A DNA stretch of 64,000 nucleotides from assembly GCA_018268595.1 (NCBI GenBank), contig JAFDWH010000013.1, positions 62,001-126,000 on the forward strand. Reading direction: 5' to 3'. The notes under the pieces are model-generated. The model saw only the letters and a list, made by a program, of their open reading frames with translations. It did not search any database and was not told where the DNA came from. The first letter of the stretch is position 1. Every line of letters begins with the position of its first letter. A program made the translations under genes and the position numbers. Positions 13,889-48,338 of this stretch are shown one piece after another. The DNA comes from Actinomycetota bacterium. Lineage in GTDB: Bacteria; Actinomycetota; Thermoleophilia; Solirubrobacterales; Solirubrobacteraceae.

Positions 13889-13921
13889 ACCGACTCTCCT
13901 CTTTCCGGGTAGCCGCGCCAG

Positions 13922-13949
13922 CATATAGTGGCCGAGCTCGCTTGCGCAA
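13922..13949 (-). promoter_or_regulatory. predicted promoter of the 13888->8052 operon
   Basis: On the minus strand, TTGCGC (13949-13944) and TATATG (13927-13922) are separated by 16 nt and lie about 35 nt before the GTG start, leaving a short leader with a strong AGAGGAGAG ribosome site. Confidence 0.5.
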
Positions 13950-13981
13950 CTCGTCGGTCGCTTCGGCGTCAGCCAATCTCC

Positions 13982-14010
13982 TTGACATCCAGCGCTCTGT
14001 TTTTTAGTCT
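13982..14010 (+). promoter_or_regulatory. predicted promoter TTGACA-N17-TAGTCT for the 14289 gene
   Basis: TTGACA (13982-13987) is followed after 17 nt by TAGTCT (14005-14010). The same arrangement precedes the secreted-protein genes at 22239 and 26184. It would give a leader of about 270 nt. Confidence 0.5.
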
Positions 14011-14288
14011 TTCCCAGGATCTGGGTGTGACGTCCGGGCCGAGCCGCGTCGTGAGCGGCGGCGCATCCGCAGACGCCTGACGGCGAGCCCAGGTTCGCGT
14101 CCAAAGGGCAGCTCGCGTCCAAAGGGCAGCGCCGCACTGGCACTGCAGCCATGCGCCAGCTTTGCCCGCTCGCAAAGGGGGAACCATCGGAGTCCAAACC
14201 GCGCACTCGCGCCCTTGGTGCTTGCCGCGTTTCCGGCCGCTCTCACCGCCGGCAGCACCGCTCCACCAATACAAGGAGCCAGTACACC
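14011..14288 (+). promoter_or_regulatory. long 5' leader of the 14289 gene
   Basis: Together with the two promoters, this fills the 400-bp gap between 13888 and 14289. I see no gene in it. It contains a perfect 18-bp tandem repeat (14095-14130), an AAAGGGGGA element near 14176 that recurs in the other two long leaders, and an AGGAG ribosome site about 10 nt before the ATG. It could be a structured regulatory leader, but I cannot match it to a known riboswitch. Confidence 0.4.
14095..14130. repeat. perfect 18-bp tandem duplication
   Basis: TCGCGTCCAAAGGGCAGC occurs twice head to tail (14095-14112 and 14113-14130) inside the leader of the first four-cysteine secreted protein gene. Confidence 0.9.
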
Positions 14289-14930
14289 ATGCGCTTCATC
14301 CAGAAGCTCGTCGTTGCCGCTCTGGCGGCCACGGCACTCTTCGCAGTCCTCGCAAGCGCTTCTTCAGCGAGGGAATTCGAAACTAGTGAAACGAGGATAA
14401 GAGTCGTCTTCAGGCCACTCATATTCCAGAGCACCGAAGGCGCCGACAGGATAAGCTGCACCGTCACACTCGAAGGCACCTTCCACTACAGGACCATAGC
14501 CAAAGTCGAAAGATCCCTAATCGGCTACATCACAAGGGCAATAGCAGAAACAAACACCTGTGCCTCGTCGCCGGCAGGCATCCAGGCCCGCGTCCTAACC
14601 GAAACACTCCCATGGCACGTCCAGTACAAGGACTTCGCCGGCACCCTACCCGAAGTCAGACCCCGAGTCACGGTGGTCAGGGCCGGGTTCGACCTGATCA
14701 GGGTCCCGATCCTCGGCACCTGCAAGTACATCGCCACCACGAACGGCATAATCGTCGGGCCGGCAGGTGGTGGCATCAATGAAGGCACCAGGGCATCGAG
14801 ACTCATCGCCGAAAACGGCGTCGCGAACCCCAGCATCACACCATTCTGCCCCGAAGGCAGATTTACGAGCAACGCCGAACCAATAACGGTCCTAGGCGGC
14901 ACCACAGCAGTAACCGTCAGACTAATATAA
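14289..14930 (+). CDS. small secreted four-cysteine protein, copy A
   Basis: This 213-residue exported protein has a 27-residue signal peptide (cleavage after SASSA). The mature part has four cysteines (57, 91, 145, 187), placed as if for two disulfides, and ends in VTVRLI. No known family is recognised. Copies B (15063) and C (15801) follow directly and D (22239) is a diverged relative. The mature region has unusual codon use: 15 of 17 arginines are AGG or AGA, and ATA, GAA and ACA are common, unlike surrounding genes. ATG 14289 is preceded by AGGAG; the frame extends upstream to 14151, but that would bury the signal peptide. Confidence 0.82.
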   Translation: MRFIQKLVVAALAATALFAVLASASSAREFETSETRIRVVFRPLIFQSTEGADRISCTVTLEGTFHYRTIAKVERSLIGYITRAIAETNTCASSPAGIQARVLTETLPWHVQYKDFAGTLPEVRPRVTVVRAGFDLIRVPILGTCKYIATTNGIIVGPAGGGINEGTRASRLIAENGVANPSITPFCPEGRFTSNAEPITVLGGTTAVTVRLI

Positions 14931-14942
14931 GCAATTGATCAT

Positions 14943-14973
14943 ACAACGGGGCCGCATCCTGCGGCCCCGTTGT
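14943..14973 (+). terminator. perfect 14-bp hairpin after copy A
   Basis: ACAACGGGGCCGCA and its exact complement flank a 3-nt loop 13 bp after the stop, followed by CTTTC. It may terminate transcription or act as an intercistronic stabiliser, since no promoter is evident before copy B. Confidence 0.65.
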
Positions 14974-15062
14974 CTTTCGGCTCGCACCAGGCGATGCGCT
15001 CCCTGCCGAAGGAGGCACCGCTTCCTTACCGCCGAGCCTGCAACCAGACAGGGGACTGACGA

Positions 15063-15704
15063 ATGCAAGCAGTCAAACACTCTCTTCTCGGGATTCTCGT
15101 AGCCACGGCACTCTTCGCAGTCCTCGCAAGCACCGCTTCAGCGAGGGAATTCGAAGTCAGTGAAACGAGGGCAAGAGTGGTCTACAGGCCACTCATATTC
15201 CAGAGCACCGAAGGCGCCGACAGGATAAGCTGCACCGTCACACTCGAAGGCACCTTCCACTACAGGACCATAGCCAAAGTCGAAAGATCCCTATTCGGCT
15301 ACGTCACAAGGGCCGCAGTCGACACCGCCAACTGCGCATCATCACCCGTAGGCATCCAAGCCCGCGTCCTAACCGAAACACTGCCATGGCACCTCCAGTA
15401 CAAGGACTTCGCCGGCACCCTACCCGAAGTCAGACCCAGAATCACGCTGATCAGGGCCGGATTCGACCTCATCAGGGTCCCGATCCTCGGCACCTGCAAG
15501 TACATCATAACCACGAACGGCATAGTTGTCGGGCCAGGCGGTGGCGGAATCAACGAAGGCACCAGGGCATCAAGAATCATCGCCGAAAACGGCGTCGCGA
15601 GCCCCAGCATCACACCATTCTGCCCCGAAGGCAGATTCACGAGCAACGCCGAACCAATAACGGTCCTAGGCGGCACCACAACAGTAACCGTCAGACTAAT
15701 ATAG
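15063..15704 (+). CDS. small secreted four-cysteine protein, copy B
   Basis: This is the second tandem copy: 213 residues, with a 27-residue signal peptide ending STASA and the same four cysteines and VTVRLI end as copy A. Long stretches of DNA in the region coding for residues about 40-75 are identical to copies A and C, whereas signal peptides differ more, which points to recent duplication or gene conversion. AGGGGA lies 7 nt before the ATG. No clear promoter lies in the 132-bp gap after copy A, so it may depend on read-through. Function unknown; export is inferred from the signal peptide. Confidence 0.82.
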   Translation: MQAVKHSLLGILVATALFAVLASTASAREFEVSETRARVVYRPLIFQSTEGADRISCTVTLEGTFHYRTIAKVERSLFGYVTRAAVDTANCASSPVGIQARVLTETLPWHLQYKDFAGTLPEVRPRITLIRAGFDLIRVPILGTCKYIITTNGIVVGPGGGGINEGTRASRIIAENGVASPSITPFCPEGRFTSNAEPITVLGGTTTVTVRLI

Positions 15705-15715
15705 GCATCGTTGCT

Positions 15716-15744
15716 GGACGGGGCCGCACGATGCGGCCCCGTCC
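15716..15744 (+). terminator. perfect 13-bp hairpin after copy B
   Basis: GGACGGGGCCGCA and its complement flank a CGA loop 12 bp past the stop. The flanking and stem sequence is nearly shared with the hairpin after copy C. Confidence 0.65.
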
Positions 15745-15800
15745 GCCGTTAGCCACGGCCAGAAGCATCACCGAGCAACCAGCAAGGGGAACGGCACACC

Positions 15801-16442
15801 GTGCACACACACAAACACCTCATCACCGCAGCGCTCGCCGCCACCGCACTCCTCGTAGCGCTCGCAACGACCGCGTCGGCGAGGCAGTTCGAAACCAGTG
15901 AAACCAGGATAAGAGTCGTCTTCAGGCCACTCATATTCCAGAGCACCGAAGGCAGCGACAGGATAAGCTGCACCGTCACACTCGAAGGCACCTTCCACTA
16001 CAGGACCATAGCCAAAGTCGAAAGATCCCTAATCGGCTACATCACCAGGGCGGCAATCGACACCGCCAACTGCGCATCATCACCCGCCGGAATCCAGTTA
16101 CGCGTTCTAACTGAAACACTGCCATGGCACGTCCAATACGTTGACTTCAGCGGCACCCTACCCGAAGTCAGACCACGCATCAGGGTGATCAACCTAGGAT
16201 TCGATGAGATCAGGGTCCCGATCCTCGGCACCTGCAAATACTCCGGCAGCCCCAACTATATAGCCGTTGGGCCGGCAGGCAATGGCATCAACGAAGGCAC
16301 CAGGGCCGCCAGACTGATCTCCGAAAACGGAATTGCCATTAGGAGCAGCACGGCATTCTGCCCAGAAATAAGATGGACCAGCGGCGCCGAACCAATCACG
16401 ATACTAGGCGGCACCACAGCAGTCACCGTCAGACTAATATAG
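15801..16442 (+). CDS. small secreted four-cysteine protein, copy C
   Basis: This third tandem copy has 213 residues, starting at a GTG with AAGGGGA upstream. It has a 27-residue signal peptide ending TTASA, four conserved cysteines and the common VTVRLI end. It has diverged more than A and B in the second half (for example KYSGSPNYIAVG, FCPEIRWTSGAEP), but shares the central block of identical DNA. AGG/AGA/ATA codons are again frequent. Its last 9 bp overlap the extended tail of the convergent gene 16434-19772. Function unknown. Confidence 0.82.
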   Translation: MHTHKHLITAALAATALLVALATTASARQFETSETRIRVVFRPLIFQSTEGSDRISCTVTLEGTFHYRTIAKVERSLIGYITRAAIDTANCASSPAGIQLRVLTETLPWHVQYVDFSGTLPEVRPRIRVINLGFDEIRVPILGTCKYSGSPNYIAVGPAGNGINEGTRAARLISENGIAIRSSTAFCPEIRWTSGAEPITILGGTTAVTVRLI

Positions 16443-19400
16443 GCATCGTTGCTGGACGGGGCCGCGTGATCGTGGCCCCGTTGGTGCTGCATCACCAACG
16501 CGACGACAGCTGCTCGACCGCATGTACCTCGTCACGCGAACCGGCGGCCCAGAGGCCACTCGACCTTCTCGCTCTCTCTGTCCCCGGCCTCCGCGACCAG
16601 GCCCGTCGAAGCCGTGGCGCTCCGCACAGCCGCGGCGAACCAGGCTCGACAAGGCTCCGACAAGGCTCCCGGCTTGGCTGCGCGTCGCGCTCGAAACGCG
16701 GAGCGGCCCAGTGCCGCCAATCTGACACAAGTTCCGCGCCAGCCCCACTACCCCGCGCCTCCCAGCCCACAGCCGCATTACGAAGCGGCTGATTGGCACG
16801 TCTGGCACTGCGTCGAAGCTCGCGGCGAGGTGATCGCCGCCGGGTATCGCCACGCGGCCGACGAGGTCCACGGACACCTGGCCGCGCAGCGCCACCAGGA
16901 GGTCCGGCAGGTGGCCGACAAGTCTTCTCACCAGATACACCCCACCCCGCAGCGGGTCGCGCAGCAGCGGCGTCACTGCCACAGCGCTGCCGATCCGCGC
17001 CTGCTCGCAGCGCCCGGCGCCGAACTCCTCCCACGTGCAGGCGTCTTCGACGACCGGCAGCCGCGCGCTCAGGATCGAGGGCAGCGTCACGCTCACGCGA
17101 CGGATCCCCGCTTCGCCCGGCTGCTGCGTCAACACCGCCGTCAGCGGCGTCGAGGAGCGCTCTGCCGTGTGGCCTCTCGACCCTACGAACAGCCGCAGAC
17201 GCGGATGGAATGGCAGCGCCCCACAGTCCGCCGCCCGGAACCGATCGTGCACGCCGACGACCCGTCCCGCGACCGACTCCACCATTCCGCGCACCTGCTT
17301 CTCAGCGCAGCTCGTCGGGTTCACCATGAAGCCCGGCCGGTCGACCGCCACGCGCACGTCGCGCAACTGCAGCGGGATCCCCTGCAGCGCCTGCGGCAGC
17401 GGATCGGTCACGACCCGCAGCGCCGCCGTCCGCCGATCGACGAACACCGCCGCCCGCACGACGACCGTCCCCAGGTCGAACGGGCCCGCCACCGCCGGCA
17501 CCACCACCGACAGCCCGAACGGCGCACCGGCGTACGGGCCCGTCACGTACACCCGCCCGCCGCTCAGGTAGAACGGCAGTGGCCCCGCCCCCGCGCCCGC
17601 CACCACATGCCCGATCAACGACGCGGCCGGACACGTCCCGAACCGCGCCTCGCCCTCCCCGCACAGCACGACATCCGACAACCGCCCCAGCAGCCCGCGC
17701 GGCAGCCGCACCGTCACCCGCCCCAGCTCCTCGTCCGCGTCGCCCCGCGTCAGCCGCAGGTGGAACGGCGAGCTGCCGCCCGCCGCGGGGCTCTCCACCC
17801 CCGCTTCGAAGCCCGGCGCGAACGGCCGCGCGCGCGGCGCGAAGCATGCGCCCCCATCCGGCCCCGCGTCCACGCCGAAGCCCGCCGACACCAGGGCGAC
17901 CGCCCCGCTCCACGACGTCAGCTCCCCCTCCACCGCATACGCACCGCACAGCGGCGGGTTCACCAGCGGCGCGCGCGGGCCGCCGTCGAAGCGCAGCCGC
18001 ACCGCCGAGAACGGGAGCTGCGGCACGTCGTCGAAGGTCGCCGTCACCTGTCCGCTCAGCGGGTCCGTCTCGACCCGCCCCGCCAGCTTCACGATCAGCC
18101 CCGGCCCCTTCGCCACCAGGTACACCGCCAGCAGCGAGTCGAACGGGTTGTCGTGCGGCCCTGCCAGGTAGATCGAGCCCTCGAGCGGCACGTCGAGCAG
18201 CGGCGTCTCGACCGTCAGCGACCCGACCCGCGAGCCGTCCGGGCACGTCGGGTCCGCCGTCGAGCGCAACGCCACCTGCGCCGGAGAGCAGCCCTGCAGG
18301 CCGTCCGCCGCCGACGGGTTCACGCGCACGCCGACCGGCAAGCGCACGACGACGCGCCGCACGTCGCCCGTCCCGATCGCCGCCGGGTCGTCGAGCTGCG
18401 GCAGCGTCAGCGCGAACGCGTAGCCCGCCGGCGCGCCCGCCCGCCGCGAGTCCGGCGCGACCGACAGCCGCGGCGCGAACGGCACCGCGTCGCAGTCGGT
18501 CGTCCCCTGCTCCGCCCCCCAGTCGCCCGGCGCATACGGATACCCCGGCGGCAGGTGGCTGACGAACCGCGCCTGCACGAACGCGCCCGGGTGCGCCCAC
18601 GAGTCGAGCGAGACCGTCACCGGCAGCCCCACCCCGGGCGCCGTGCACGACGTCGGGTTGCGGAGGAACGCCTTCAGCGGCCCGTCGACCGTGCACGACG
18701 GCCCGCCCTCCCACGGCGCCTGCTGCCCCGGGCACGCGCGCTCGCGGTCGTGCGCGTGCGCCGCCGGCACGCCCCAGAAGGTCAGGCTCGTCCCCGCTAT
18801 CGCGAGCCCCTGCGGGATGTCGCGCACGCGCACCGACAGGCCGTAGTCGCCGCCGCTGCGCAGCTCGCCGTCGAGCGTGACGACCGTGCCGGCGACGTTG
18901 AAGCCGAAGCGCGCCGGCACGTCCGGCGGCGGCTGCATGTCGAAGATCGGCAGCGGCCCGTAGACCGTCTTGACGCCGACGCCGCTCAGCCGCACGATCG
19001 CCGTCCCGACCTGCGACGCCGACGGGCACTCCGTTCTCGCCAGCAGCCCGCCGGTCGCGAGCTGCGCGGCGGTGCATCTGGCCGCCGCCGTCGGGTTGCC
19101 CACGAGGCCCGGCGGCAGGTCCGCCAGCACGTCCTTGACCGGCTCGACCGGCCACAGCAGCCCCTTCAGCGGCGCCGGGTCGGTGACGGTGTCGAAGTCG
19201 AGCGAGACGGTCGCGTCGTACGGGTGCGCGCCCGCGTGCGTCTGCGGCGCGCCGGACGCGTCGGCCGTCACGGTGCCGTCGAACGCGTCGACGCCGAACG
19301 GTGGCGGCACGTCGCTCATGCGCGTGGGGTCGACCGCGCTCGCCGACGGGTTCGACGGCGCGCCGCCCGCGACCGCGAAGCGGCTCGTGAGCGTCCCGGC

Positions 19401-19772
19401 CGCGTCGCCCGCGACCGCCGCCTGCACGGTGAAGGATCTGAAGCCGCCGGCGGCGATCGCGTCGGTCGCGTCGAGGCAGGTGAAGGCGTGCGCTCCGGGC
19501 ACGAGGCCGGAGCAGTCCCAGCCGGCCGGCCCGCTGAGGATCGTCAGGCCGTCGGGCAGCACGCCGGAGAGGGCGATCGGGGTCGTCGCGCCGTCGGCGG
19601 GCGCGTCGCCGACGTTCGTGATCTGGACGACCCAGGTGTGCGTGGCGCCGGGTGCGGCGGTCGTGTCCGAGAGGACGTCGAGCCGCCAGGCGGGCGCGGG
19701 GGCGGCGCGGGCGGCCGGCGCGCCCAGCGCGGCGAGCAGGACGGCGGCCAGCAGCGGGATCAGGCGCCTCAC
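16434..19772 (-). CDS. large secreted repeat protein (DUF11-like N-terminus), copy 2
   Basis: This 1,112-residue paralogue of the 8052-11309 product starts at a GTG overlapping the upstream propeller gene by 4 nt. A signal peptide ends near AAPAPA. The DUF11-like domain (TTAAPGATHTWVVQITNVGD) and the same module order follow, including CPDGSRVGSLTVETPLLD and NPTSCAEKQVRG. The paralogue ends soon after its RNLC segment; here the frame continues about 57 residues past the equivalent RRGCAERHG, through a hairpin and into the last 9 bp of copy C, so the original stop seems to have been lost. This copy is much more GC-rich than copy 1. Function unknown. Confidence 0.78.
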   Translation of the reverse strand: MRRLIPLLAAVLLAALGAPAARAAPAPAWRLDVLSDTTAAPGATHTWVVQITNVGDAPADGATTPIALSGVLPDGLTILSGPAGWDCSGLVPGAHAFTCLDATDAIAAGGFRSFTVQAAVAGDAAGTLTSRFAVAGGAPSNPSASAVDPTRMSDVPPPFGVDAFDGTVTADASGAPQTHAGAHPYDATVSLDFDTVTDPAPLKGLLWPVEPVKDVLADLPPGLVGNPTAAARCTAAQLATGGLLARTECPSASQVGTAIVRLSGVGVKTVYGPLPIFDMQPPPDVPARFGFNVAGTVVTLDGELRSGGDYGLSVRVRDIPQGLAIAGTSLTFWGVPAAHAHDRERACPGQQAPWEGGPSCTVDGPLKAFLRNPTSCTAPGVGLPVTVSLDSWAHPGAFVQARFVSHLPPGYPYAPGDWGAEQGTTDCDAVPFAPRLSVAPDSRRAGAPAGYAFALTLPQLDDPAAIGTGDVRRVVVRLPVGVRVNPSAADGLQGCSPAQVALRSTADPTCPDGSRVGSLTVETPLLDVPLEGSIYLAGPHDNPFDSLLAVYLVAKGPGLIVKLAGRVETDPLSGQVTATFDDVPQLPFSAVRLRFDGGPRAPLVNPPLCGAYAVEGELTSWSGAVALVSAGFGVDAGPDGGACFAPRARPFAPGFEAGVESPAAGGSSPFHLRLTRGDADEELGRVTVRLPRGLLGRLSDVVLCGEGEARFGTCPAASLIGHVVAGAGAGPLPFYLSGGRVYVTGPYAGAPFGLSVVVPAVAGPFDLGTVVVRAAVFVDRRTAALRVVTDPLPQALQGIPLQLRDVRVAVDRPGFMVNPTSCAEKQVRGMVESVAGRVVGVHDRFRAADCGALPFHPRLRLFVGSRGHTAERSSTPLTAVLTQQPGEAGIRRVSVTLPSILSARLPVVEDACTWEEFGAGRCEQARIGSAVAVTPLLRDPLRGGVYLVRRLVGHLPDLLVALRGQVSVDLVGRVAIPGGDHLAASFDAVPDVPISRFVMRLWAGRRGVVGLARNLCQIGGTGPLRVSSATRSQAGSLVGALSSLVRRGCAERHGFDGPGRGGRGQREREGRVASGPPVRVTRYMRSSSCRRVGDAAPTGPRSRGPVQQRCLY
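16456..16481 (+). terminator. hairpin after copy C
   Basis: An 11-bp stem with one G-T pair (ACGGGGCCGCG / CGTGGCCCCGT) around a TGAT loop, 13 bp past the stop. On the other strand it lies inside the extended C-terminal frame of the neighbouring gene. Confidence 0.55.
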
Positions 19773-21916
19773 CGCTTGCGACCCCTGCGGTGCCGGACGT
19801 GCCGCCGCACGCAGCGCCGTCTGCCGTGCACGCGCCTGTGCACGAAGCCGCGCCGGCAGCGTCTCGCGTGCCGCGGCGGCGGCGATCTCGCGCGCGGCGT
19901 CACCGGCGCGAACACGCGGCTGCCGAGCACCGGCAGCGCCGGCGCCGCGTGCGACGCGCCGCGGCAGCCGTCGCCGTCGCACGGCGCCGGCGGCGCCGGC
20001 GGGTCGGGGAAGCCGCCGCCCACGTGCGCGTCGTAGACGTCGTAGGAGTCGTCGACGTCCCAGCCCGACAGCCGCTCGCGCGTCACGAAGAAGACGTCGT
20101 CGCCGCTCGCGCTCGCGTCGAGGAACCACGAGTCCGTCTCGCTCGCACCGCTCAACAGCAGGTGCGCCGCGCCGCTCGCGACGTCGTACTCGTACGCGTC
20201 GACGCGCCCGTTGCGGTCCTCCGGCACGAGCGCGGCAGCCGTGCTGAAGAAGACCCGCCGCCCGTCCTCCGACAGCGCCCGGCTGAGGTGCCACGTGACC
20301 TGCGAGGCGCCGCCGCCCGAGCGCACGTTCACGAGCGCGTTCGCGCCCGGCACGCTCCCCGGCGGCCCGCACGAGACGCACACGACGTCGGGCGCGAGCG
20401 GGCTCGACTGCGCCGCGCGGTAGACGTACAGCTCCGAGCAGCGCCCGTCGCTGACGGCGTTGGGATTCCCTTCCGGGCAACTGCCGTGGTCGCGTGCGGG
20501 CGCGAGGCCGCTGCCGTCGGAGACCTCGAGCAGCAGCGTGCGCCCGTCCGGCGTCACGCGCGAGACCTGCGGCGTCTGGTTCCAGGGCGTCGCGCCGGCG
20601 TTCGCGTTCGCGTCGCCGAAGCCGATCGCGCCGACGAACGAGAGCGTGCCGCCGGGCGCGCCGGTCGTGTCGTCCCACAGGTAGACGCCGTCCTCGGCGA
20701 CCGGCGGCCCGCCGTCGAGCAGCTGCCCCGGGGTGACGAAGTAGAGGCGGCGGCCGTCGTCGGAGGCGCCGATCGCGGCAGCGGCGCCGGGCGCGATCAG
20801 CGTCAGGTGGCCCGCGCCCTGCGGCGGCGAGCGGCGCCACAGGTAGAGTCCGCCACCCGGCGCGCTCGTGAGCTGCTCGGCGCTCGTGAAGAAGACGCGG
20901 TCGCCGTCGGTGCTGGCGGTCTGGAAGGCGGCCGAGGCGGGCGTTTCGGGCGGCGACTTCTCCGACGCGTTGACGTGCAGCGTCACGTCGTCGGCCGTCG
21001 TGGAAGTGCCGCGGTCGTCGAGCTCGTAGAGCTGGCTGGCGCCGGCGCCGGTCGCGCTCGTCACGCTCCCGGTGTTTGTGACGGGCGAGGTCAGCAGCAC
21101 GCGCGACCCGTCGGCCGACAGCGTGCGCGCGGTGCGCCGCAGCCCGGACACGCCCGCGCCGGCGACCGCGCACGGCCGTGCCGGCGCAGCGCCGCCCGGG
21201 CAGTCGGGCGCGACGGCGAGCAGCCGCACGACGCCGTCGTCGGCCTTGTAGAGCATCACGTTGCCTCTCACCGCGTCCGGCGTGAGCGTCTGGCGCGACT
21301 CGAACAGCACGTGGCGGAAGTCGGCCGAGGCGGCCGCGAGGTACGGGCGCTGGCTGCCCTGTTGGATCGGCGGCAGCGGCGCGGCGGCGTCCGTCAGCAG
21401 GCGGTAGTCGCCGGCGCCGGCCGTGCGCAGGTCGTCGCGCAGGTAGAGGTTCTCGACCGCGGCCACGTTCGGCGCGTCGGTCAGCGGCGACCAGGCGCGG
21501 AAGACGCCCTGCGTCAGGTCGGCCGACATGTCGCCCTCGTAGAGCGGGTCGAGGCTCTGGATCGCGCCGGCGAGCGTGAGCGACTGCTGCGGGGGCGTGA
21601 TCGCGTGCGTCGTCCAGCCGCTCGTGCCGGGCTCGGCGGTGCGCTGCGCGAGGTACTCGGCCGAGATGCCCATGCCCTGCACGTCGCCGAAGCCGCCGAG
21701 CGACGCGAACGCGACCGCCATCGGCAGGCCGGGCGCTGCGGCGGCGGCTGCGCGCGTGCGCGAGCTCTCGGCCATCACGTCGCTGCCGCCCTTCGCGCTC
21801 GGCGAGACGAGCTCCCATGCGCGGCCGTCCGGCAGCGCCGCCTGCCCGGCGGCCGGCAGGAGCGCGCAGGCGACGGTGGCGAGGATCAACCCCCTCTTAG
21901 TGGTCCGCTGCCACAC
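19769..21916 (-). CDS. secreted TolB-like beta-propeller protein, copy 2
   Basis: This 715-residue exported protein is paralogous to 11390-13888, aligning from ALPDGRAWELVSPSAKGG onward. Its blades include SADFRHVLFES, SADGSRVLLTS, STDGDRVFFTS, SDDGRRLYFVT and SEDGRRVFFST, and it has the conserved GWDVDDSYDVYDA segment. It lacks the 95-residue inserted module of copy 1, which accounts for most of the length difference. The tail is basic with paired cysteines (ARRCRRG, RRRCVRRH). The GTG start has AAGAGG too close to be a normal ribosome site, but a promoter -10 lies immediately upstream, so the message may be leaderless. It overlaps 16434-19772 by 4 nt. Confidence 0.8.
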   Translation of the reverse strand: MWQRTTKRGLILATVACALLPAAGQAALPDGRAWELVSPSAKGGSDVMAESSRTRAAAAAAPGLPMAVAFASLGGFGDVQGMGISAEYLAQRTAEPGTSGWTTHAITPPQQSLTLAGAIQSLDPLYEGDMSADLTQGVFRAWSPLTDAPNVAAVENLYLRDDLRTAGAGDYRLLTDAAAPLPPIQQGSQRPYLAAASADFRHVLFESRQTLTPDAVRGNVMLYKADDGVVRLLAVAPDCPGGAAPARPCAVAGAGVSGLRRTARTLSADGSRVLLTSPVTNTGSVTSATGAGASQLYELDDRGTSTTADDVTLHVNASEKSPPETPASAAFQTASTDGDRVFFTSAEQLTSAPGGGLYLWRRSPPQGAGHLTLIAPGAAAAIGASDDGRRLYFVTPGQLLDGGPPVAEDGVYLWDDTTGAPGGTLSFVGAIGFGDANANAGATPWNQTPQVSRVTPDGRTLLLEVSDGSGLAPARDHGSCPEGNPNAVSDGRCSELYVYRAAQSSPLAPDVVCVSCGPPGSVPGANALVNVRSGGGASQVTWHLSRALSEDGRRVFFSTAAALVPEDRNGRVDAYEYDVASGAAHLLLSGASETDSWFLDASASGDDVFFVTRERLSGWDVDDSYDVYDAHVGGGFPDPPAPPAPCDGDGCRGASHAAPALPVLGSRVFAPVTPRARSPPPRHARRCRRGFVHRRVHGRRRCVRRHVRHRRGRKR

Positions 21917-21922
21917 CTCTTA

Positions 21923-21951
21923 ACTGTAAACAGTGATGGCTCCAAGTGCAA
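21923..21951 (-). promoter_or_regulatory. predicted promoter of the 21916->16434 operon
   Basis: On the minus strand, TTGCAC (21951-21946) and TACAGT (21928-21923) are 17 nt apart, and the -10 ends 6 nt before the GTG, predicting a leaderless transcript. ACTGT-AA-ACAGT overlaps the -10 as a small inverted repeat. Confidence 0.5.
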
Positions 21952-22002
21952 GCGGCAAATGCGTTGGCCCACCTGTCCAACTGGAAACTAAAATGTTGTT
22001 TG

Positions 22003-22031
22003 TTGACACACTGGATATTGGTGTGTAGAGT
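22003..22031 (+). promoter_or_regulatory. predicted promoter TTGACA-N17-TAGAGT for the 22239 gene
   Basis: TTGACA (22003-22008) and TAGAGT (22026-22031) are exactly 17 nt apart in a locally AT-rich stretch. The match to the promoters at 13982 and 25975 suggests common control. Confidence 0.55.
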
Positions 22032-22238
22032 GTTGTCACGCTACCGGAAGACCCTGAAGCGCCTGCCCCGACTGCCGACAGCCCGCGGGGACAGGCTCCG
22101 GCCATCCGCTTCCGGGAACGCGCGGGACACCGGCCTGAAGAGACAGAAAGGGGGATCGTGCCCGAACCCGTCTGGCTTGCTCTTCCCTGCTCGTCGCGAG
22201 CGCCCGCTCGCGCCTAATTCGACCCAAAGGACTGCGTC
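22032..22238 (+). promoter_or_regulatory. long 5' leader of the 22239 gene
   Basis: With the two promoters above, this accounts for the 322-bp gap between divergent genes. I see no coding sequence. It holds a GAAAGGGGGATC element near 22149 like the one in the 14289 leader, and AAAGGA 7 nt before the ATG. A CCGAACCCGTC segment loosely recalls the end of cyclic-di-AMP riboswitches, but the rest of that consensus was not found. Confidence 0.4.
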
Positions 22239-22865
22239 ATGAGAACCGGCATCACCGTCGCGCTCGCGACGGCGGCGGCCGCGCTCCTGCTCGCGCTCGC
22301 CGTCGGCTCCGCGTCCGCCAACAGGCTCAGCTACAGCGAACAGAGCTTCAGAATAGTTTGGACCAGACTGATCTTCTCTGAAGCGGGCGGCGGCTTCCCG
22401 ATCAACTGCCCCGTCACCCTCGAAGGCAGCTTCCACGCAAGAACGTTCACGAAGACGAGGGACCAGCTAAGCGGTTACATCACCAACGCGGTGGTGAACA
22501 ACGCCGGCTGCACCGAAGGGCATGCGACGATCCTAAGAGCGACGCTGCCGTGGCACGTCACCTTCCAGTCGTTCACCGGCACGCTACCCAACATAACCGG
22601 GGTCCGTTACGACCTGATCGGCGCGGCCTTCCAGATCGAACCGGGCCTGGGGATCGTCTGCCTAGCCTCCTCGAGCGTCACCTCTCCGGCGGCCGGCAAC
22701 GCGAGCCGCGAAGCGGGCGGCAACATCACGTCGCTGCAGCCGGACTCGTCGCTCGCGATACCCGTCACCGGGGCGCTCTGCCCCGAAGCCGGCATATTCT
22801 CCGGCTCCGGCGAAGTGTATGTCCAAGGCAGCAGCGAAAGACGCGTGAGACTGACCCTAATCTAG
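22239..22865 (+). CDS. small secreted four-cysteine protein, diverged copy D
   Basis: The 208-residue product is a distant relative of copies A-C. It shares a 27-residue signal peptide (ending GSASA), four cysteines (57, 91, 141, 181; the first two at identical positions), the CPVTLEGSFHARTF and LPWHV motifs, and an RLTLI end. Arginine codons AGA/AGG and the ATA codon are again favoured in the mature part. A terminator-like hairpin follows at once. Function unknown; export and two disulfides are inferred. It lies divergent to the second propeller operon. Confidence 0.8.
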   Translation: MRTGITVALATAAAALLLALAVGSASANRLSYSEQSFRIVWTRLIFSEAGGGFPINCPVTLEGSFHARTFTKTRDQLSGYITNAVVNNAGCTEGHATILRATLPWHVTFQSFTGTLPNITGVRYDLIGAAFQIEPGLGIVCLASSSVTSPAAGNASREAGGNITSLQPDSSLAIPVTGALCPEAGIFSGSGEVYVQGSSERRVRLTLI

Positions 22866-22877
22866 GCTGCGCACGGC

Positions 22878-22908
22878 GCCGTGCAGCGGGTCAAGTCCGC
22901 TGCACGGC
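22878..22908 (+). terminator. perfect 12-bp hairpin after copy D
   Basis: GCCGTGCAGCGG and its exact complement surround a 7-nt loop beginning 13 bp after the stop codon. Its position argues that the next gene starts at 22926 rather than at the upstream GTG 22881. Confidence 0.7.
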
Positions 22909-22925
22909 AGCCGATCATCCGGGCC

Positions 22926-23618
22926 GTGAGCCCCCTCAACGCAACGCTCCTGCTCGCGCTCGCGACTTGCGTGCTCGCGCTCGTCGCGCTGCGCCGCCGC
23001 GCGGCGCGCACGCAGCGCGACCTGCGCTCGCTGATGGCGACGACGACTGAGCTGCGCCACCTCGCCGACCACGACGCGCTCACGGGGCTCCCGAACCGCC
23101 GCCGCTTCGAGCAGGAGCTCGCGCGCCACCTCGCGCACGTGCGCCGCTACGGCCCGGAGGGCGCGGTGCTGATCCTCGATCTCGACTGCTTCAAGCCCGT
23201 CAACGACACGTTCGGGCACGCCGCCGGCGACCGCCTGCTGGCGCGCGTCGCGTGCGTGCTGCAGGAGCGCCTGCGCGCGACCGACGTCGTCGCGCGGCTC
23301 GGCGGCGACGAGTTCGCGGTCCTGCTGCCGCGCGTCGACCGCGCCGGCGCGGGCGCCGTCGCGCGCAGCCTCGTCGAGACGGTGCGCGCCGAGGCGCTCA
23401 CCGCCGACGCGCGCGGCGTCACCGTGAGCGTGGGCGTGATCGCGTTCGACGCGCACGCGCCGCTCGTGCCGGAGGGCGTGCTGGCGGCGGCCGACGTCGC
23501 GATGTACGACGCGAAGGCGACCGGCGGCGACGGCTGGGCGCTCTACGCCCAGGCGCGCGTGACGGCGGCGGCGCTGCGGCCGGCGCCGCGTCACTCCCCG
23601 GCGGTCGCGGTCACGTAG
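22926..23618 (+). CDS. membrane-anchored GGDEF diguanylate cyclase
   Basis: This 230-residue protein has one N-terminal transmembrane helix (about 5-22), a short basic linker and a single GGDEF domain. The active-site GGDEF is at 126-130 and a complete RATD inhibitory site is five residues upstream (117-120), so it should make cyclic-di-GMP with product inhibition. There is no recognisable sensor domain. GTG 22926 is chosen because the earlier in-frame GTG lies inside the preceding hairpin. The last 28 bp overlap the convergent cytochrome gene. Confidence 0.88.
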   Translation: MSPLNATLLLALATCVLALVALRRRAARTQRDLRSLMATTTELRHLADHDALTGLPNRRRFEQELARHLAHVRRYGPEGAVLILDLDCFKPVNDTFGHAAGDRLLARVACVLQERLRATDVVARLGGDEFAVLLPRVDRAGAGAVARSLVETVRAEALTADARGVTVSVGVIAFDAHAPLVPEGVLAAADVAMYDAKATGGDGWALYAQARVTAAALRPAPRHSPAVAVT

Positions 23619-24244
23619 GCGGCCACCGCCCTGAGCTGGGCGGGCGAGAGCCTGCTCTTGAACGCGGGCATCTCGTCGGGTATGCCCTTGAGGATCCGCT
23701 CCATCACCATGCGCTCGCTCGGCTTGACGAAGTTGAATTCGGTGCCGGGATACATCGGTGTCCCGGTCCTTCTGCGCCCCGCGATTCCGTGACAGCTCGC
23801 GCAGTTCTGCGCGAACACCTGTCTCCCCGTCGCGAGCTGCGTCGTCCTGGCGCTCGACGCGGCGATTCTGCCGCCGGCGACGTCCGCCACGTAGGCGGCG
23901 ACCGCTCTGATCTGCGTCGCCGACAGCTCGTTTTCGAACGACTGCATGTCGAAGCCGCCCCTGTGAATGCGCTCTTCCACGTATTCGGCTCTCGGCTTGA
24001 CTTCGTCGAGGTTCGGGATCGGCGACTCTATGAACGTCGGGTGCGCCACACGTCCCTCGAGCGTGTGGCACAGCCCGCAGTGCTTGACGAACAGCGGCCG
24101 CCCCGCCGCCACGAGTCTCGCCTGGAGCGCCGCGTGCGCGCGGGCGCGTGCCCTCGCGGCCGCGTCGTCCCTCTTCGAGCTGTCGCTGCCGCATCCGGCG
24201 AGCGCCAGGATCAGCAGCAGTGCGCATGCCGTCGCGCGTCGCAC
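23591..24244 (-). CDS. diheme c-type cytochrome lipoprotein
   Basis: This 217-residue exported electron carrier has a lipoprotein signal (LALAGC, lipidated Cys18) and two cytochrome c domains with heme-binding sites CGLCH (56-60) and CASCH (148-152). Methionines in FDMQSF and DEMPAF are candidate sixth ligands. Each domain ends in the typical LS..Q.RAVAAYV helix. It would be anchored outside the membrane and shuttle electrons, probably to a terminal oxidase; its partner is not in the window. GTG start with GAGGGGGA 7 nt upstream. AGA/AGG codons are frequent, as in other exported proteins here. Confidence 0.9.
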   Translation of the reverse strand: MRRATACALLLILALAGCGSDSSKRDDAAARARARAHAALQARLVAAGRPLFVKHCGLCHTLEGRVAHPTFIESPIPNLDEVKPRAEYVEERIHRGGFDMQSFENELSATQIRAVAAYVADVAGGRIAASSARTTQLATGRQVFAQNCASCHGIAGRRRTGTPMYPGTEFNFVKPSERMVMERILKGIPDEMPAFKSRLSPAQLRAVAAYVTATAGE

Positions 24245-24319
24245 CCGAACGTCCCCCTCGATCGCATGTCCCGGCCGCGCCTTCCCCCGGCGCGGTCCGT
24301 GCGGGCGAGCCTACCAACT

Positions 24320-24793
24320 TCAGGCGCGGCGCAGGCGACGTACCTGCGCGCGCGTGAGCGCCACCAGATCGGCCGGCTCGAGCTCCAGCTCGAGCCCCCG
24401 CCGGCCGGCGCTGACGAACACGCTCGCATGGGCGAGCGCGCTGTCGTCGACGAGCGTCGGCAGCGCGCGCCGCTGCCCGAGCGGGCTGATCCCGCCCGCG
24501 ACGTAGCCGGTCACCCGCTCGGCGCGCTCGGTCGGGGCCAGCGCGGCGCGCTTGCCGACGGCCTTCAGGTCGAGCGTGGCCGCCGACGGCACGATGCAGA
24601 CGGTCAGCCCGTCCGCGCCGCCGTCGGCCGCGACGACGAGCGTCTTGAAGACGCGCGCCGGGTCGAGTCCGAGCGCCTCCGCCGCCTCGAGCGCGTAGGA
24701 GCCGGCCGCCGGGTCGTGCGCGTACGCGTGCAGCGCGTGCTCGATCCCTGCCGCCCGCGCGGCGCGCGTCGCCGGTGTCTCGCGTCCCGCCAT
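24320..24793 (-). CDS. ybaK: YbaK/EbsC-type Cys-tRNA(Pro) deacylase
   Basis: The 157-residue protein matches the YbaK family in length and motifs: VFKTLVV (with the conserved lysine), VCIVPSAATLDLKAVGK, TGYVAGGISPLGQ and VFVSAGRRGLELEL. The family hydrolyses Cys mis-attached to tRNA(Pro) or other mischarged tRNAs in the cytoplasm. The internal ATG at 24793 is used because upstream residues of the longer frame are not part of the fold. The divergent neighbour is the second glycosyltransferase-like gene. Confidence 0.87.
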   Translation of the reverse strand: MAGRETPATRAARAAGIEHALHAYAHDPAAGSYALEAAEALGLDPARVFKTLVVAADGGADGLTVCIVPSAATLDLKAVGKRAALAPTERAERVTGYVAGGISPLGQRRALPTLVDDSALAHASVFVSAGRRGLELELEPADLVALTRAQVRRLRRA

Positions 24794-24875
24794 CGCCCCC
24801 AAGGCAGCGTAGCCGCTTGGGGCGGGTCGACTGCAGACACGCTCCGCCACCGCACAAGCTGCGATACTCCACGTA

Positions 24876-25934
24876 ATGGCGCGTAGGGGGAAGAGCGCGG
24901 CCAATGGGCGCACGGCTCGTTTGCGCATCGGCGTTCTTTGTGCCGAAGACACAGCTAATGCGTACTACCGCACGACAGTGCCGCTGCGTGCGCTCGAGCG
25001 CCGCGGCCATCAAGTGCTTTGGCCCGATCAGCACGATTCGCAAGAGCTCTTGATGAGCGCCGTGCCGGCATTCGACGTCTTCGTAATCCACCACTACTTC
25101 GACGAATGGCTGCACGTGCCGGCAATGCGGTTACGCGAGGCGGGCGTAGCAGTCATCTGGGACAAGGACGACGACATCTCAGCGAACCGGCGTGGCAGCG
25201 TTGCCTTCCGCAGCTATGGCGGCCGACGTGGCATGCGGCGCGCATTTGCGCGAAGCGCCGAGCTGGCTCGTGCCTCCAGCCTGATGACGACGCCGAGCGA
25301 GCACTTGGCGCAGCGCTACCGGGACGAAGGCGTCGAGTTCGTCGAAGTGATCGAGAACTACCTCGCGCCTGAGCAGCTCAAGCCGCAGCGGCAGCGGCAT
25401 CCAGGGGTTGTGATCGGAATCACGGCGGCACGCGAGCATCAGCACGACATCGCGAAGCTGCGGATCGACAAAGTCCTGCAGCGGGTGCTCGAGGCCCACG
25501 ACGGGGTACGCGTGATGAGCTTCGGATGCGCGCTCGACCTGCCGCCTGGACGCTACGCGAACGAGTCGCACGTGCCGATCGAGCAACTCGTCGCACGCGA
25601 GCAGCAGTTCGACATCGGGCTTGCGCCGCTCGTCGACTCGGCGTTCAACCGCGCACGCTCGAACGTGAAGCTGAAGGAGTATGCCGCAGCGGGGGCGATG
25701 TGGCTTGCCTCACCGATCGGCCCCTACGTTGGGATGGGCGAGGCGCAGGGCGGCATGCTCGTCGACGACCATGCCTGGCAGCAAGTGCTGGAAGAGCTGA
25801 TCGTCGACTACCGCCGCCGTGTCGAGCTGATGAAGCGCGCGCGAGCGTGGGCGCCCTCCCAGTCGATCGAGCATGCCGCAGGATCCTGGGAGGCCGCGTT
25901 CGTGGGCGCGCTCCGGCGAGCACAGATGGGCTAG
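24876..25934 (+). CDS. glycosyltransferase-like protein (GT-B type), paralogue 2
   Basis: This 352-residue paralogue of 5893-6936 shares the acidic WDKDDD motif, TPSEHL, VIENYL and the C-terminal FNRARSNVKLKEYAAAG with SPIGPY following. It probably transfers a sugar from an activated donor to an unknown acceptor. ATG 24876 lies 5 nt after GATACTCC, so the message may be leaderless. Its codon use is less GC-extreme than that of its neighbours (many GTT, CTT, AAT codons) and differs from the ATA/AGA-rich paralogue. It lies just before the 26184 secreted-protein gene. Confidence 0.75.
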   Translation: MARRGKSAANGRTARLRIGVLCAEDTANAYYRTTVPLRALERRGHQVLWPDQHDSQELLMSAVPAFDVFVIHHYFDEWLHVPAMRLREAGVAVIWDKDDDISANRRGSVAFRSYGGRRGMRRAFARSAELARASSLMTTPSEHLAQRYRDEGVEFVEVIENYLAPEQLKPQRQRHPGVVIGITAAREHQHDIAKLRIDKVLQRVLEAHDGVRVMSFGCALDLPPGRYANESHVPIEQLVAREQQFDIGLAPLVDSAFNRARSNVKLKEYAAAGAMWLASPIGPYVGMGEAQGGMLVDDHAWQQVLEELIVDYRRRVELMKRARAWAPSQSIEHAAGSWEAAFVGALRRAQMG

Positions 25935-25974
25935 TCGTCAGCCAGCTGCTGTGAGCCGACTGGCACGTTGCAAC

Positions 25975-26004
25975 TTGACAAGCCATTGATCTAGTTTTTA
26001 GAGT
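25975..26004 (+). promoter_or_regulatory. predicted promoter TTGACA-N18-TAGAGT for the 26184 gene
   Basis: TTGACA (25975-25980) is followed by TAGAGT at 25999-26004 (TTAGAG at 17-nt spacing). The same pair of elements precedes the 14289 and 22239 genes. Confidence 0.5.
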
Positions 26005-26183
26005 CTTGTTATCGCGGAGAGGGTCCGCGTGGTCCCGGCGGCCTGCCGCGACAGATGGGGGAGACGGAGCCTGGCGCCCGCCGGTTGTGGGCGCACGCAT
26101 GCATGCGAGCCCCCGTGCGTCCGGCCGGCGGCGCCGGTTCCGGTCGACATCCGCGCGAGACGCGCGGAGAAAGGCAGAGAGAC
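26005..26183 (+). promoter_or_regulatory. long 5' leader of the 26184 gene
   Basis: About 175 nt without a convincing gene. It includes an ATGGGGGAGAC element near 26053 resembling those in the other two long leaders, several GC-rich inverted stretches, and AAGGCAGAGAG before the ATG. No known riboswitch class is recognised. Confidence 0.35.
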
Positions 26184-26945
26184 ATGCGATCACGCAAGTT
26201 CACGCTTGCGCTGACGGCGACGCTCGCCACGCTCGCGCTGGCGGGCATGGGACCTGTCGCACGGGCGACGTTCCCCGACTTCACGGGGTGCAACGCCACC
26301 GACATCAGCAGGGAAGCGTGCATAGACATCCAGCAGCGCAGCGGCAACCTCAACATAAAGGGCTTCAACGTCCCGCTGCATGAAACCATGGAGATCCGCG
26401 GGAAGCTGCTCGCGGAAGCCGGCGGTAACAACACGTTCGTTCCGCCGACCGGCACCAACGGCTTCTTCACGAGACCCGTGTCAGTTCCGGGCGGGATCTT
26501 CGGCATAGAATGGCTGCCGGGCAACGAAGTGCTAGCGATCACCGAGCTCGCCGGCTCGCCGTCGCTAATCCACATCGACACGGGCAACCTCAGCGTCAGA
26601 ATCCCGATCAAGGTGCGGCTCGTGAACCTGCTGCTCGGGATGGACTGCCACATCGGTACGAACAGCAACCCGGTCGTCCTCAACCTGATCACGGGGACCA
26701 CCAGCCCGCCGCCGCCGAACACGCCGATCTCCGGCAGAACAGGGACGCAGTCGTTCACCGAAAGAGCCATATTGATCAGGGGCAACGTGAACGTCGAAAA
26801 CTCGTTCGCGGTCCCCGGCGCGACGGAATGCGGCCTCGGGCTCGGGCTGATCAACTCGCTCGTGAACCTCAGGCTCAGGCTGCCGTCGGCGGCCGGCAAC
26901 AACTCCGCCGAAGCCACCAACGACGTCGCACTCGGCCTCTCGTAG
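26184..26945 (+). CDS. secreted protein of unknown function
   Basis: This 253-residue exported protein has a signal peptide ending near ARA (about residue 28). The mature part contains four cysteines (36 and 46, then in MDCHIG and TECGLG), a PPPPN turn and many short beta-strand-like segments. It is not related in sequence to the four-cysteine family A-D, but shares its promoter type, long leader and AGA/AGG/ATA codon preference, so it is probably expressed with them. ATG 26184 was chosen over 26055 because only it gives a normal signal peptide. A bidirectional hairpin follows. Function unknown. Confidence 0.8.
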   Translation: MRSRKFTLALTATLATLALAGMGPVARATFPDFTGCNATDISREACIDIQQRSGNLNIKGFNVPLHETMEIRGKLLAEAGGNNTFVPPTGTNGFFTRPVSVPGGIFGIEWLPGNEVLAITELAGSPSLIHIDTGNLSVRIPIKVRLVNLLLGMDCHIGTNSNPVVLNLITGTTSPPPPNTPISGRTGTQSFTERAILIRGNVNVENSFAVPGATECGLGLGLINSLVNLRLRLPSAAGNNSAEATNDVALGLS

Positions 26946-48200: not shown

Positions 48201-48264
48201 CGGCCGCGATCTGCCAGCAGCCCCAGAAACGCCAAAAGCCCCGCTACCGCAGGGCTTCCGTCAG

Positions 48265-48338
<74 letters not shown>

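What the first reader, a model, noticed from the sequence alone, without database searches (positions are those of the whole stretch)
14370..26945. Strong AGA/AGG/ATA codon preference in the mature parts of exported proteins
In copy A, 15 of 17 mature arginine codons are AGG or AGA, and ATA, CTA and GAA are common, while the signal peptide uses GC-rich codons. Copies B-D, the 26184 gene, the diheme cytochrome (23591) and, more mildly, sodA and fdxA also use AGA/AGG, whereas the large metabolic genes mostly use CGC. This may reflect translational pacing of exported or abundant proteins, or a tRNA pool effect; foreign origin is less likely because sodA shows it too.
Basis: partly seen in the sequence, partly recalled or inferred. 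Interest (0 to 1): 0.55.

Follow-up and report, generated by a model that had tools for sequence, protein, structure and literature searches.

The report
Exported protein segments favour AGA codons
In one genus of actinobacteria the rare arginine codon AGA is used several times more often in protein parts that end up outside the cell than in parts that stay inside, and in one family of exported proteins another rare codon sits at exactly conserved positions, which makes it possible to test directly whether such codons carry a meaning of their own.

Summary
The core observation holds and is wider than the finding says. Layer 1: in this genus (own genome by gene class, six others through binding proteins) exported proteins use AGA, far less AGG, much more than cytosolic ones; 18 genomes of other genera do not. 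The bias follows topology inside single genes: six PASTA kinases have AGA at 52/131 arginines outside, 11/346 inside. At aligned sites the excess is 8-10-fold (6-9 with stricter filters) whether relatives have Lys, Arg or another residue, while Lys->CGN is not raised, so it acts on the codon. EF-Tu and EF-G lack it. Layer 2: copies A-D belong to a genus-restricted exported family whose mature part, not its signal peptide, uses AGR, CTA, ATA and (here) GAA. CTA is column-specific (15/15 at two Leu columns, three species) although common synonyms are randomised. tRNA(UCU), the AGA reader, is remodelled in five of six genus genomes. A plain AGA=Lys code looked likely from alignments but fails at catalytic lysines (0/60). 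Best reading: a codon-level programme for translocated segments, probably slow or specialised decoding (inferred). Ambiguous AGA decoding is not excluded.

The parts
14289..14369 (+). Copy A signal peptide (27 codons), genome-typical codons
   Evidence: sequence; codon contrast; cleavage site placed by an A-x-A pattern, not tested
14370..14930 (+). Copy A mature part: 15/17 Arg AGR, GAA 13/13, rich in ATA and CTA
14646..14648 (+). CTA codon of the GT-L-PE/PN motif, CTA in 15 of 15 aligned family members
14922..14927 (+). Last two sense codons CTA ATA: CTA 15/15, ATA 13/15
15063..15704 (+). Copy B (signal peptide 15063-15143, mature from 15144)
15801..16442 (+). Copy C (signal peptide 15801-15881, mature from 15882), GTG start
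22239..22865 (+). Copy D, diverged paralogue (33-35% identity to A)
26184..26945 (+). Other exported-looking gene with the same codon set (AGR 8/14, GAA 9/11, ATA 4/18), no Pfam match at E 0.1
23591..24244 (-). Diheme cytochrome c lipoprotein, AGR 13/23
48264..48338 (-). tRNA-Arg(ACG), a CGN reader; the AGA reader tRNA(UCU) lies elsewhere in the genome (G000:C4:233190-233262)

Best explanation
Shown: in this genus codon choice depends on where the encoded segment ends up. AGA is preferred in segments that cross the membrane and is rare in cytosolic segments, in the first 40 codons of exported proteins, and at catalytic lysines and strongly conserved arginines. In the A-D family the preference extends to AGG, CTA, ATA and (this species) GAA, and CTA in particular is held at fixed columns. 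Inferred: AGA is still arginine, but is read by a remodelled, possibly poorly charged tRNA(UCU), so AGA (like CTA and ATA, each a rare codon) is a locally slow codon; selection keeps such codons in translocated segments, where slower elongation would help coupling to export or folding outside, and removes them elsewhere. Because lysine has no comparably rare codon in use, positively charged surface sites often became AGA-arginine.
For: Class effect in own genome and in G003 (pooled AGR: 6 lipoproteins 0.31, 6 secreted 0.24, 104 cytosolic 0.07). PF13458 binding proteins: AGA 253/559 Arg vs flanking genes 30/1070 in 27 loci of 7 genus genomes; 1/404 vs 7/1081 in 30 loci of 18 genomes of other genera. 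PF00496: 165/359 in 15 genus loci, 0/257 in 15 others (my sums). Same-ORF topology, six kinases: 11/346 inside, 52/131 outside, P 6e-23, higher outside in 6 of 6. Enrichment in exported proteins is alike at relatives' Lys (0.145 vs 0.016), Arg (0.044 vs 0.005) and other sites (0.015 vs 0.002), while CGN at Lys sites is not raised (0.102 vs 0.170): codon-level, not residue-level. In exported proteins outside the family the other codons stay close to cytosolic usage (GAA 0.07 vs 0.04, AGC 0.40 vs 0.32 being the largest shifts I see). CTA column-specificity 0.87 while no ordinary synonym is significant in the seven most diverged members. Remodelled tRNA(UCU) in 5 of 6 genus genomes examined.
Against: No translation rate was measured. 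Polytopic proteins show only a weak effect (AGA/Arg 0.023 inside, 0.037 outside, P 0.009; AGA against AAR no difference, P 0.54). AGA sits mainly at sites that are Lys in relatives, although turning existing CGN into AGA would be the easiest route to a slow Arg codon. The genome's own only PF13458 protein has AGA 1/50. G001 has AGA-rich binding proteins but a differently built tRNA(UCU) that keeps an A at the place of A20. AGG is rarer than AGA yet hardly used in the genus' binding proteins, and in exported proteins it is commoner in codons 2-40 (22/353) than after (45/2212), the reverse of AGA, so rarity alone is not the rule. Cytosolic exceptions exist (Ku tail, gas-vesicle tails).
Confidence: 0.45

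Rival explanations
1. AGA is no longer plain arginine in this genus: the remodelled tRNA(UCU) inserts lysine, wholly or as a mixture with arginine. Exported proteins tolerate it; catalytic sites avoid it.
For: AGA in binding proteins replaces Lys one for one: per 1000 codons, 42 genus proteins AAR 31.2 + AGA 29.0, 45 others AAR 60.1. Likelihood of outgroup residues favours Lys over Arg by 70 nats in exported proteins, 17.6 with free conservation. Conserved columns: AGA->K 8, R 0 of 12; CGC->R 19 of 24. AGA/CGN stay column-separate (excess concordance 0.42; Ser TCN/AGY 0.12; AGG/CGN -0.02) at 30-50% identity. tRNA(UCU) lacks the A of position 20 in five genomes. The two EF-Tu AGA sites are Lys in 3 and 4 of the 4 PDB homologues shown.
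Against: Catalytic lysines of 30 penicillin-binding proteins are AAG in 60/60 although AGA is 45% of AGA+AAG there; Walker A lysines AAG in 75/75. Cytosolic AGA sites favour Arg (27 nats; 4 with free conservation). In one search the AAG control could not work, since only the few AAA sites were left to train Lys, and it came out as Arg. No clear class I LysRS (one 60-residue local match per genome, just over the cut-off in G000 and G005). Lys identity rests on the anticodon triplet and A73; this tRNA has C35 and G73. At 50-95% identity AGA/CGN concordance (0.61) is not above Ser (0.72). Low prior.
Confidence: 0.25
2. Ordinary GC-driven Lys->Arg substitution (AAR->AGR) at tolerant sites, as reported for 567 high-GC species by Shulgina and Eddy.
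For: AGA sits at Lys sites of relatives; the paper describes this pattern. In other genera AGG does so too (AGG paired with AAG in 11 of 29).
Against: AAG is 99% of Lys codons, so AGG should be the product, yet AGA far exceeds AGG. AAG and AGA have equal GC. It does not explain restriction to exported segments, nor the similar enrichment at Arg and other sites.
Confidence: 0.15
3. Residue-level selection for arginine over lysine outside the cell, with AGA a by-product.
For: Lys falls and Arg rises in the genus' binding proteins if AGA is Arg.
Against: Lys->CGN is not higher in exported proteins (0.102 vs 0.170).
Confidence: 0.07
4. Recent acquisition of AT-rich genes, or codon adaptation of highly expressed genes.
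For: GC3 of A-C is 0.67-0.69.
Against: In the mature parts GAA is 151/155 but CAA 4/30, AAA 7/30 and GAT 1/24; codon set kept at fixed columns in three species; EF-Tu and EF-G lack it; the profile search found no match at E 1e-5 in the 225 genomes of the order outside the genus (at most 13 candidates scored per genome).
Confidence: 0.04

Closest known systems
False AGA/AGG=Lys inferences in 567 high-GC bacteria (Shulgina & Eddy 2021, PMC8629427; section 9 and passages seen)
   Same: AGA codons align with lysine of relatives in a GC-rich genome
   Different: AGA and hardly AGG; concentrated in extracytoplasmic segments; tRNA(UCU) without A20 in 5 of 6 genomes, whereas the paper found almost all such tRNAs Arg-type
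Position-specific conservation of synonymous rare codons (Chaney et al. 2017, PMC5438181; abstract and section list seen)
   Same: Rare codons held at fixed places in homologues
   Different: There rare codon clusters and rarity as such are conserved; here the identity of a single codon (CTA 15/15) in one exported family, while common synonyms are randomised
Rare codon clusters in secreted genes (PMC2833160; search listing only)
   Same: Rare codons linked to secretion
   Different: There at the 5' end; here in the mature part and not in the signal peptide
Regulatory rare codon TTA/bldA of Streptomyces (recalled, no call)
   Same: A rare codon confined to a functional class
   Different: Here sorted by protein topology within genes, not only by gene

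Membership tests
Sense-codon reassignment AGA->Lys | Codon aligns with the new amino acid across the proteome | tested here: inconclusive
   Lys favoured in exported (n 235), Arg in cytosolic (n 106) proteins; the 25 best-aligned non-exported sites are mixed, K 0.24, R 0.16
Sense-codon reassignment AGA->Lys | Codon used at invariant positions of the new amino acid | tested here: not met
   0 of 60 catalytic Lys in 30 PBP domains; 0 of 75 Walker A Lys
Sense-codon reassignment AGA->Lys | Decoding tRNA carries Lys identity elements | tested here: not met
   C35 and G73; elements, sequences
Sense-codon reassignment AGA->Lys | Lysine found in the protein | not testable with these tools
   needs mass spectrometry
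GC-driven Lys->Arg artefact | AGA and/or AGG at Lys columns | tested here: met
   (AGA, exported proteins)
GC-driven Lys->Arg artefact | Follows the main Lys codon (AAG->AGG) | tested here: not met
   genus binding proteins and PBPs: AGA far above AGG
GC-driven Lys->Arg artefact | AGA-reading tRNA of Arg type (A20, A/G73) | tested here: not met
   G000 and G003-G006 lack the A; G001 has it; G002 not examined
Position-specific conserved rare codons | Rare codon conserved at a column beyond chance while other synonyms vary | tested here: met
   seven most diverged members: CTA excess 0.87, permutation P 0.001; CTC/CTG/CTT -0.15
Position-specific conserved rare codons | Slower translation at the codon | not testable with these tools
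   needs ribosome profiling
Highly expressed gene codon bias | Shared with EF-Tu and ribosomal proteins | tested here: not met
Horizontally acquired gene | Composition shift across the whole gene, recent in the species | tested here: not met
   signal peptides ordinary; kept in G003 and G005 homologues

The most novel reading that the evidence does not exclude
In this genus AGA carries its own meaning: the remodelled tRNA(UCU) delivers lysine, or a lysine/arginine mixture, at AGA, and evolution has sorted AGA into extracytoplasmic, non-catalytic sites. It would be a natural ambiguous or reassigned AGA codon in free-living bacteria, filtered by cell compartment.
Probability: 0.22. Interest if true: 0.95.

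Novelty: new variant of a known kind. Interest (0 to 1): 0.72.

Why it matters
If codon choice follows the final side of the membrane within one gene, synonymous codons carry topological information, which tests long-standing ideas on translation pacing during export. If instead AGA is decoded differently, it would be a new kind of code change in bacteria, and many exported proteins of the genus would be wrong in databases. Either way G003 (by its length, 6,359,369 bases, probably the culturable Conexibacter woesei; recalled, not looked up) makes it testable.

Tried and rejected
High expression: rejected. General AT drift: rejected; in mature parts GAA 151/155 but CAA 4/30, AAA 7/30, GAT 1/24. 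Avoidance of GAG as a nucleotide motif: rejected; GAG in frame 0.0018, out of frame 0.0125 and 0.0263. Overlapping gene: not supported; no other frame is open in all 15 members (+3 is open in 5 of 15, all others have stops). Plain AGA=Lys: entertained, given up. An AGA in a KMSKS-like motif lies in a protein with fibronectin type III domains and was dropped; the other 8 such motifs have AAG at both lysines, not checked to be synthetases. Class I LysRS: local matches of about 60 residues in frames of 839-1382 aa in 10 of 12 genomes, over the cut-off in 2; I take them for related synthetases, untested. Structure prediction of copy A from copies A-D gave mean pLDDT 38.5; no fold search was run. 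Tat motifs: 11, 22 Arg, no AGA, too few.

Weak points and errors: read the wrong strand for many loci; one search replaces their binding-protein part and one search is discarded. Of 30 loci, three weak or partial ones (L164, L165, L170) were not used. The 'family' column holds 14 genes chosen by their codons, so I quote (members found by homology) instead. In one search one paralogue (P11) was started 10 codons too far upstream; searches use the right start. Genes were called by my own amino-acid-based caller; some calls are spurious, so class statistics use GC3 above 0.85, which drops genes; export and membrane classes are heuristics. In one search 13 loci were taken and 2 dropped for lack of a clear TM segment; for four of six kinases, and for the five non-kinase proteins, the inside part may hold in-frame sequence upstream of the true start. 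In the two kinases with shorter frames (G005, G006) AGA is 6/61 inside and 20/45 outside. In one search the tRNA of G011 was missed by my script. In the 13-member test Ala, Thr, His and Glu third bases are also significant, from relatedness; hence the seven-member test. Alignment cells are not independent.
Full report
WHAT WAS CHECKED. The main codon counts in the finding are right. The window is G000:C4:62001-126000 of a 3.57 Mb genome. Copies A-D belong to an exported family with about 14 members in this genome (15 matches, one a short fragment), no Pfam match (A and D) and, with a profile, matches at E 1e-5 in 3 of 232 genomes of the order, all in the same genus. The family is rich in Glu and Arg; its function is unknown and the predicted structure was useless.

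GENOME BACKGROUND. I called 1131 genes in the window plus 60 stretches (1.25 Mb, about 35%). Cytosolic genes use CGC 0.69, AGA 0.04, AGG 0.01, GAA 0.04, ATA 0.01, CTA below 0.01. Mature parts of 12 family members: AGA 66 and AGG 84 of 187 Arg, GAA 151/155, ATA 67/164, CTA 63/175, but CAA 4/30 and AAA 7/30. EF-Tu (AGR 2/23) and EF-G (5/49) look cytosolic. tRNA genes seen: Arg ACG, CCG, CCT twice, TCT; Glu TTC and CTC.

LAYER 1, AGA IN EXPORTED SEGMENTS. Outside the family, lipoproteins and secreted proteins use more AGA while other codons stay close to cytosolic usage. The 20 genes with AGR of 0.3 or more include PstS, a Bmp-like and other binding proteins, cytochromes, CoxB, PilA- and PilC-like proteins (by eye), but also a few cytosolic ones such as gas-vesicle proteins. 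AGA is less frequent in codons 2-40 of exported proteins (12/353) than after (209/2212; P 6e-5); AGG goes the other way (22/353, 45/2212; P 4e-5). The trait is found across the genus and not beyond it in what I sampled: G003 shows it, G014 (another genus of the family, AGA 0.2% of Arg; 22 secreted proteins, 1 lipoprotein) does not. PF13458 binding proteins of seven genus genomes (27 loci) have AGA 253/559 against 30/1070 in flanking cytosolic or membrane genes; 30 loci from 18 genomes of other genera have 1/404 against 7/1081. The one PF13458 protein of the own genome is an exception (1/50). PF00496 proteins: 165/359 in 15 genus loci, 0/257 in 15 others (my sums; loci are the best-scoring matches only).

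TOPOLOGY WITHIN ONE GENE. Six PASTA kinases have AGA at 11/346 Arg on the cytosolic side and 52/131 outside (P 6e-23); against Lys codons 11:53 and 52:34 (P 1e-7). Five other PASTA proteins: 5/325 and 8/49 (P 4e-5) (limits in Tried and rejected). Polytopic membrane proteins (134) show little. So in these genes the bias belongs to the segment, not to gene origin or expression.

IS AGA STILL ARGININE? In a UrtA-like binding protein AGA sits at conserved Lys of other genera and not at conserved Arg. Larger sets repeat this for exported proteins. Cytosolic sites are mixed: likelihood favours Arg, but the 25 best-aligned sites have K 0.24 and R 0.16, against R 0.70 for AGG (n 10). EF-Tu's two AGA sites are Lys in 3 of 4 and 4 of 4 PDB homologues shown; EF-G's five are mixed and not Arg in the homologues shown. 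Composition of binding proteins balances if AGA is counted as Lys (60.2 vs 60.1 per 1000). Shulgina and Eddy (PMC8629427) warn that this pattern arises falsely in 567 high-GC species by Lys->Arg change. I therefore tested lysines that chemistry requires. In 30 transpeptidase domains with 178 AGA and 215 AAG, the SxxK and K(T/S)G lysines are AAG in 60/60; Walker A lysines are AAG in 75/75 (the pattern also hit 20 Arg-bearing segments, one with AGA, which I judged by eye not to be a P-loop). A free AGA=Lys code is refuted; a mixed reading is not. Codon exchange in the genus puts AGA equally far from AAR and CGN (ratios 3.2-3.7 and 3.2-3.3; AAR-CGN 2.2; AGA-AGG 11-12). AGA and CGN stay at separate columns (0.42, against 0.12 for Ser TCN/AGY and -0.02 for the few AGG/CGN, at 30-50% identity; but 0.61 against 0.72 for Ser at 50-95%).

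CODON OR RESIDUE? Sorting sites by the relatives' residue (at least 5 of 10 neighbours identical): Lys sites AGA 0.145 exported, 0.016 not; Arg sites 0.044 and 0.005; other sites 0.015 and 0.002. CGN at Lys sites is 0.102 and 0.170. With stricter filters the AGA ratios are 6-9. The enrichment is similar at all three kinds of site and concerns AGA, not CGN, which speaks for selection on the codon. Exported sites come mostly from binding proteins of several genus genomes, the others mostly from G000.

THE tRNA. tRNA(UCU) of G000 and G003-G006 has acceptor GCG(C/G)GAG, D-arm AATTGG-TAGAGC, a G-U first pair and G73, while 9 of the 12 other-genus UCU tRNAs aligned carry the GGATAGAGC D-arm of Arg tRNAs; G001 differs from both (position 20 assigned from my alignment; 19 of 22 genomes had a hit). 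Its nearest relative among the tRNAs compared in the genome is tRNA-Gly(CCC), 75%. A20, C35, U/G36 and A/G73 define bacterial Arg identity, the anticodon and A73 that of Lys (PMC9976931, passages). The tRNA keeps C35, U36 and G73. That it is poorly charged is inference.

LAYER 2, THE A-D FAMILY. Signal peptides use ordinary codons, mature parts AGR and CTA. Across 13 non-duplicate members, two of them from G005 and G003, CTA, ATA and AGR are column-specific; in the seven most diverged the excess is 0.87 (CTA, P 0.001), 0.21 (ATA, P 0.05), 0.44 (AGR, P 0.015; Ser TCN/AGY 0.30, P 0.02), and no ordinary third-base choice is significant. So only CTA clearly exceeds what two-step codon families show. 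CTA is 15/15 at the Leu of GTLPN and at the penultimate codon (the last Leu) and absent from five other Leu columns. Neighbouring Thr and Pro third bases vary, so no RNA motif is evident. GAA is not shared: the homologues in G003 and G005 have GAA 0/3 and 0/4. Precedent: conserved rare-codon positions (PMC5438181, abstract).

LITERATURE. Searches for Conexibacter with AGA and genetic code, with codon usage, and for Solirubrobacter, rare codons in exported proteins, Lys-to-Arg in secreted proteins, alternative codes with Arg codons, conserved rare codons and ambiguous AGA decoding listed nothing that I recognise as describing this; only open-licence PMC papers were searched and listings were capped.

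VERDICT. A real, genus-bound codon programme tied to protein topology, plus a position-specific rare-codon pattern in the A-D family. The pacing reading is the best single account but rests on inference; altered AGA decoding is the main rival.

Noticed in passing
window 5893-6936: A cytosolic glycosyltransferase-like gene (by eye) has AGR 11/41 and ATA 4/17 at GC3 0.91, unlike its neighbours.
   Followed up: no
L110:9789-10691 (G003): Ku protein whose C-terminal tail has AGA at 9 of 10 Arg, where a Lys-rich tail would be expected (recalled); a cytosolic exception to the topology rule.
   Followed up: partly
L063:3079-4232 (G000): Gas-vesicle-like proteins with AGA mostly in Arg-rich C-terminal tails.
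   Followed up: partly
L055:7021-7096 (G000:C26): Second tRNA-Arg(CCT) gene, built differently from the first (73% vs 55% identity to tRNA UCU).
   Followed up: no
G000:C17:778-1135: Cluster of tRNA-Val(TAC), Glu(TTC), Lys(TTT), readers of A-ending codons, near a contig end.
   Followed up: no
window 11390-14104, 16434-19772, 19769-21916: Large exported-looking proteins (16434 with a weak DUF11 and 19769 with a weak PD40 match, both below cut-off) lie around the A-D copies.
   Followed up: no
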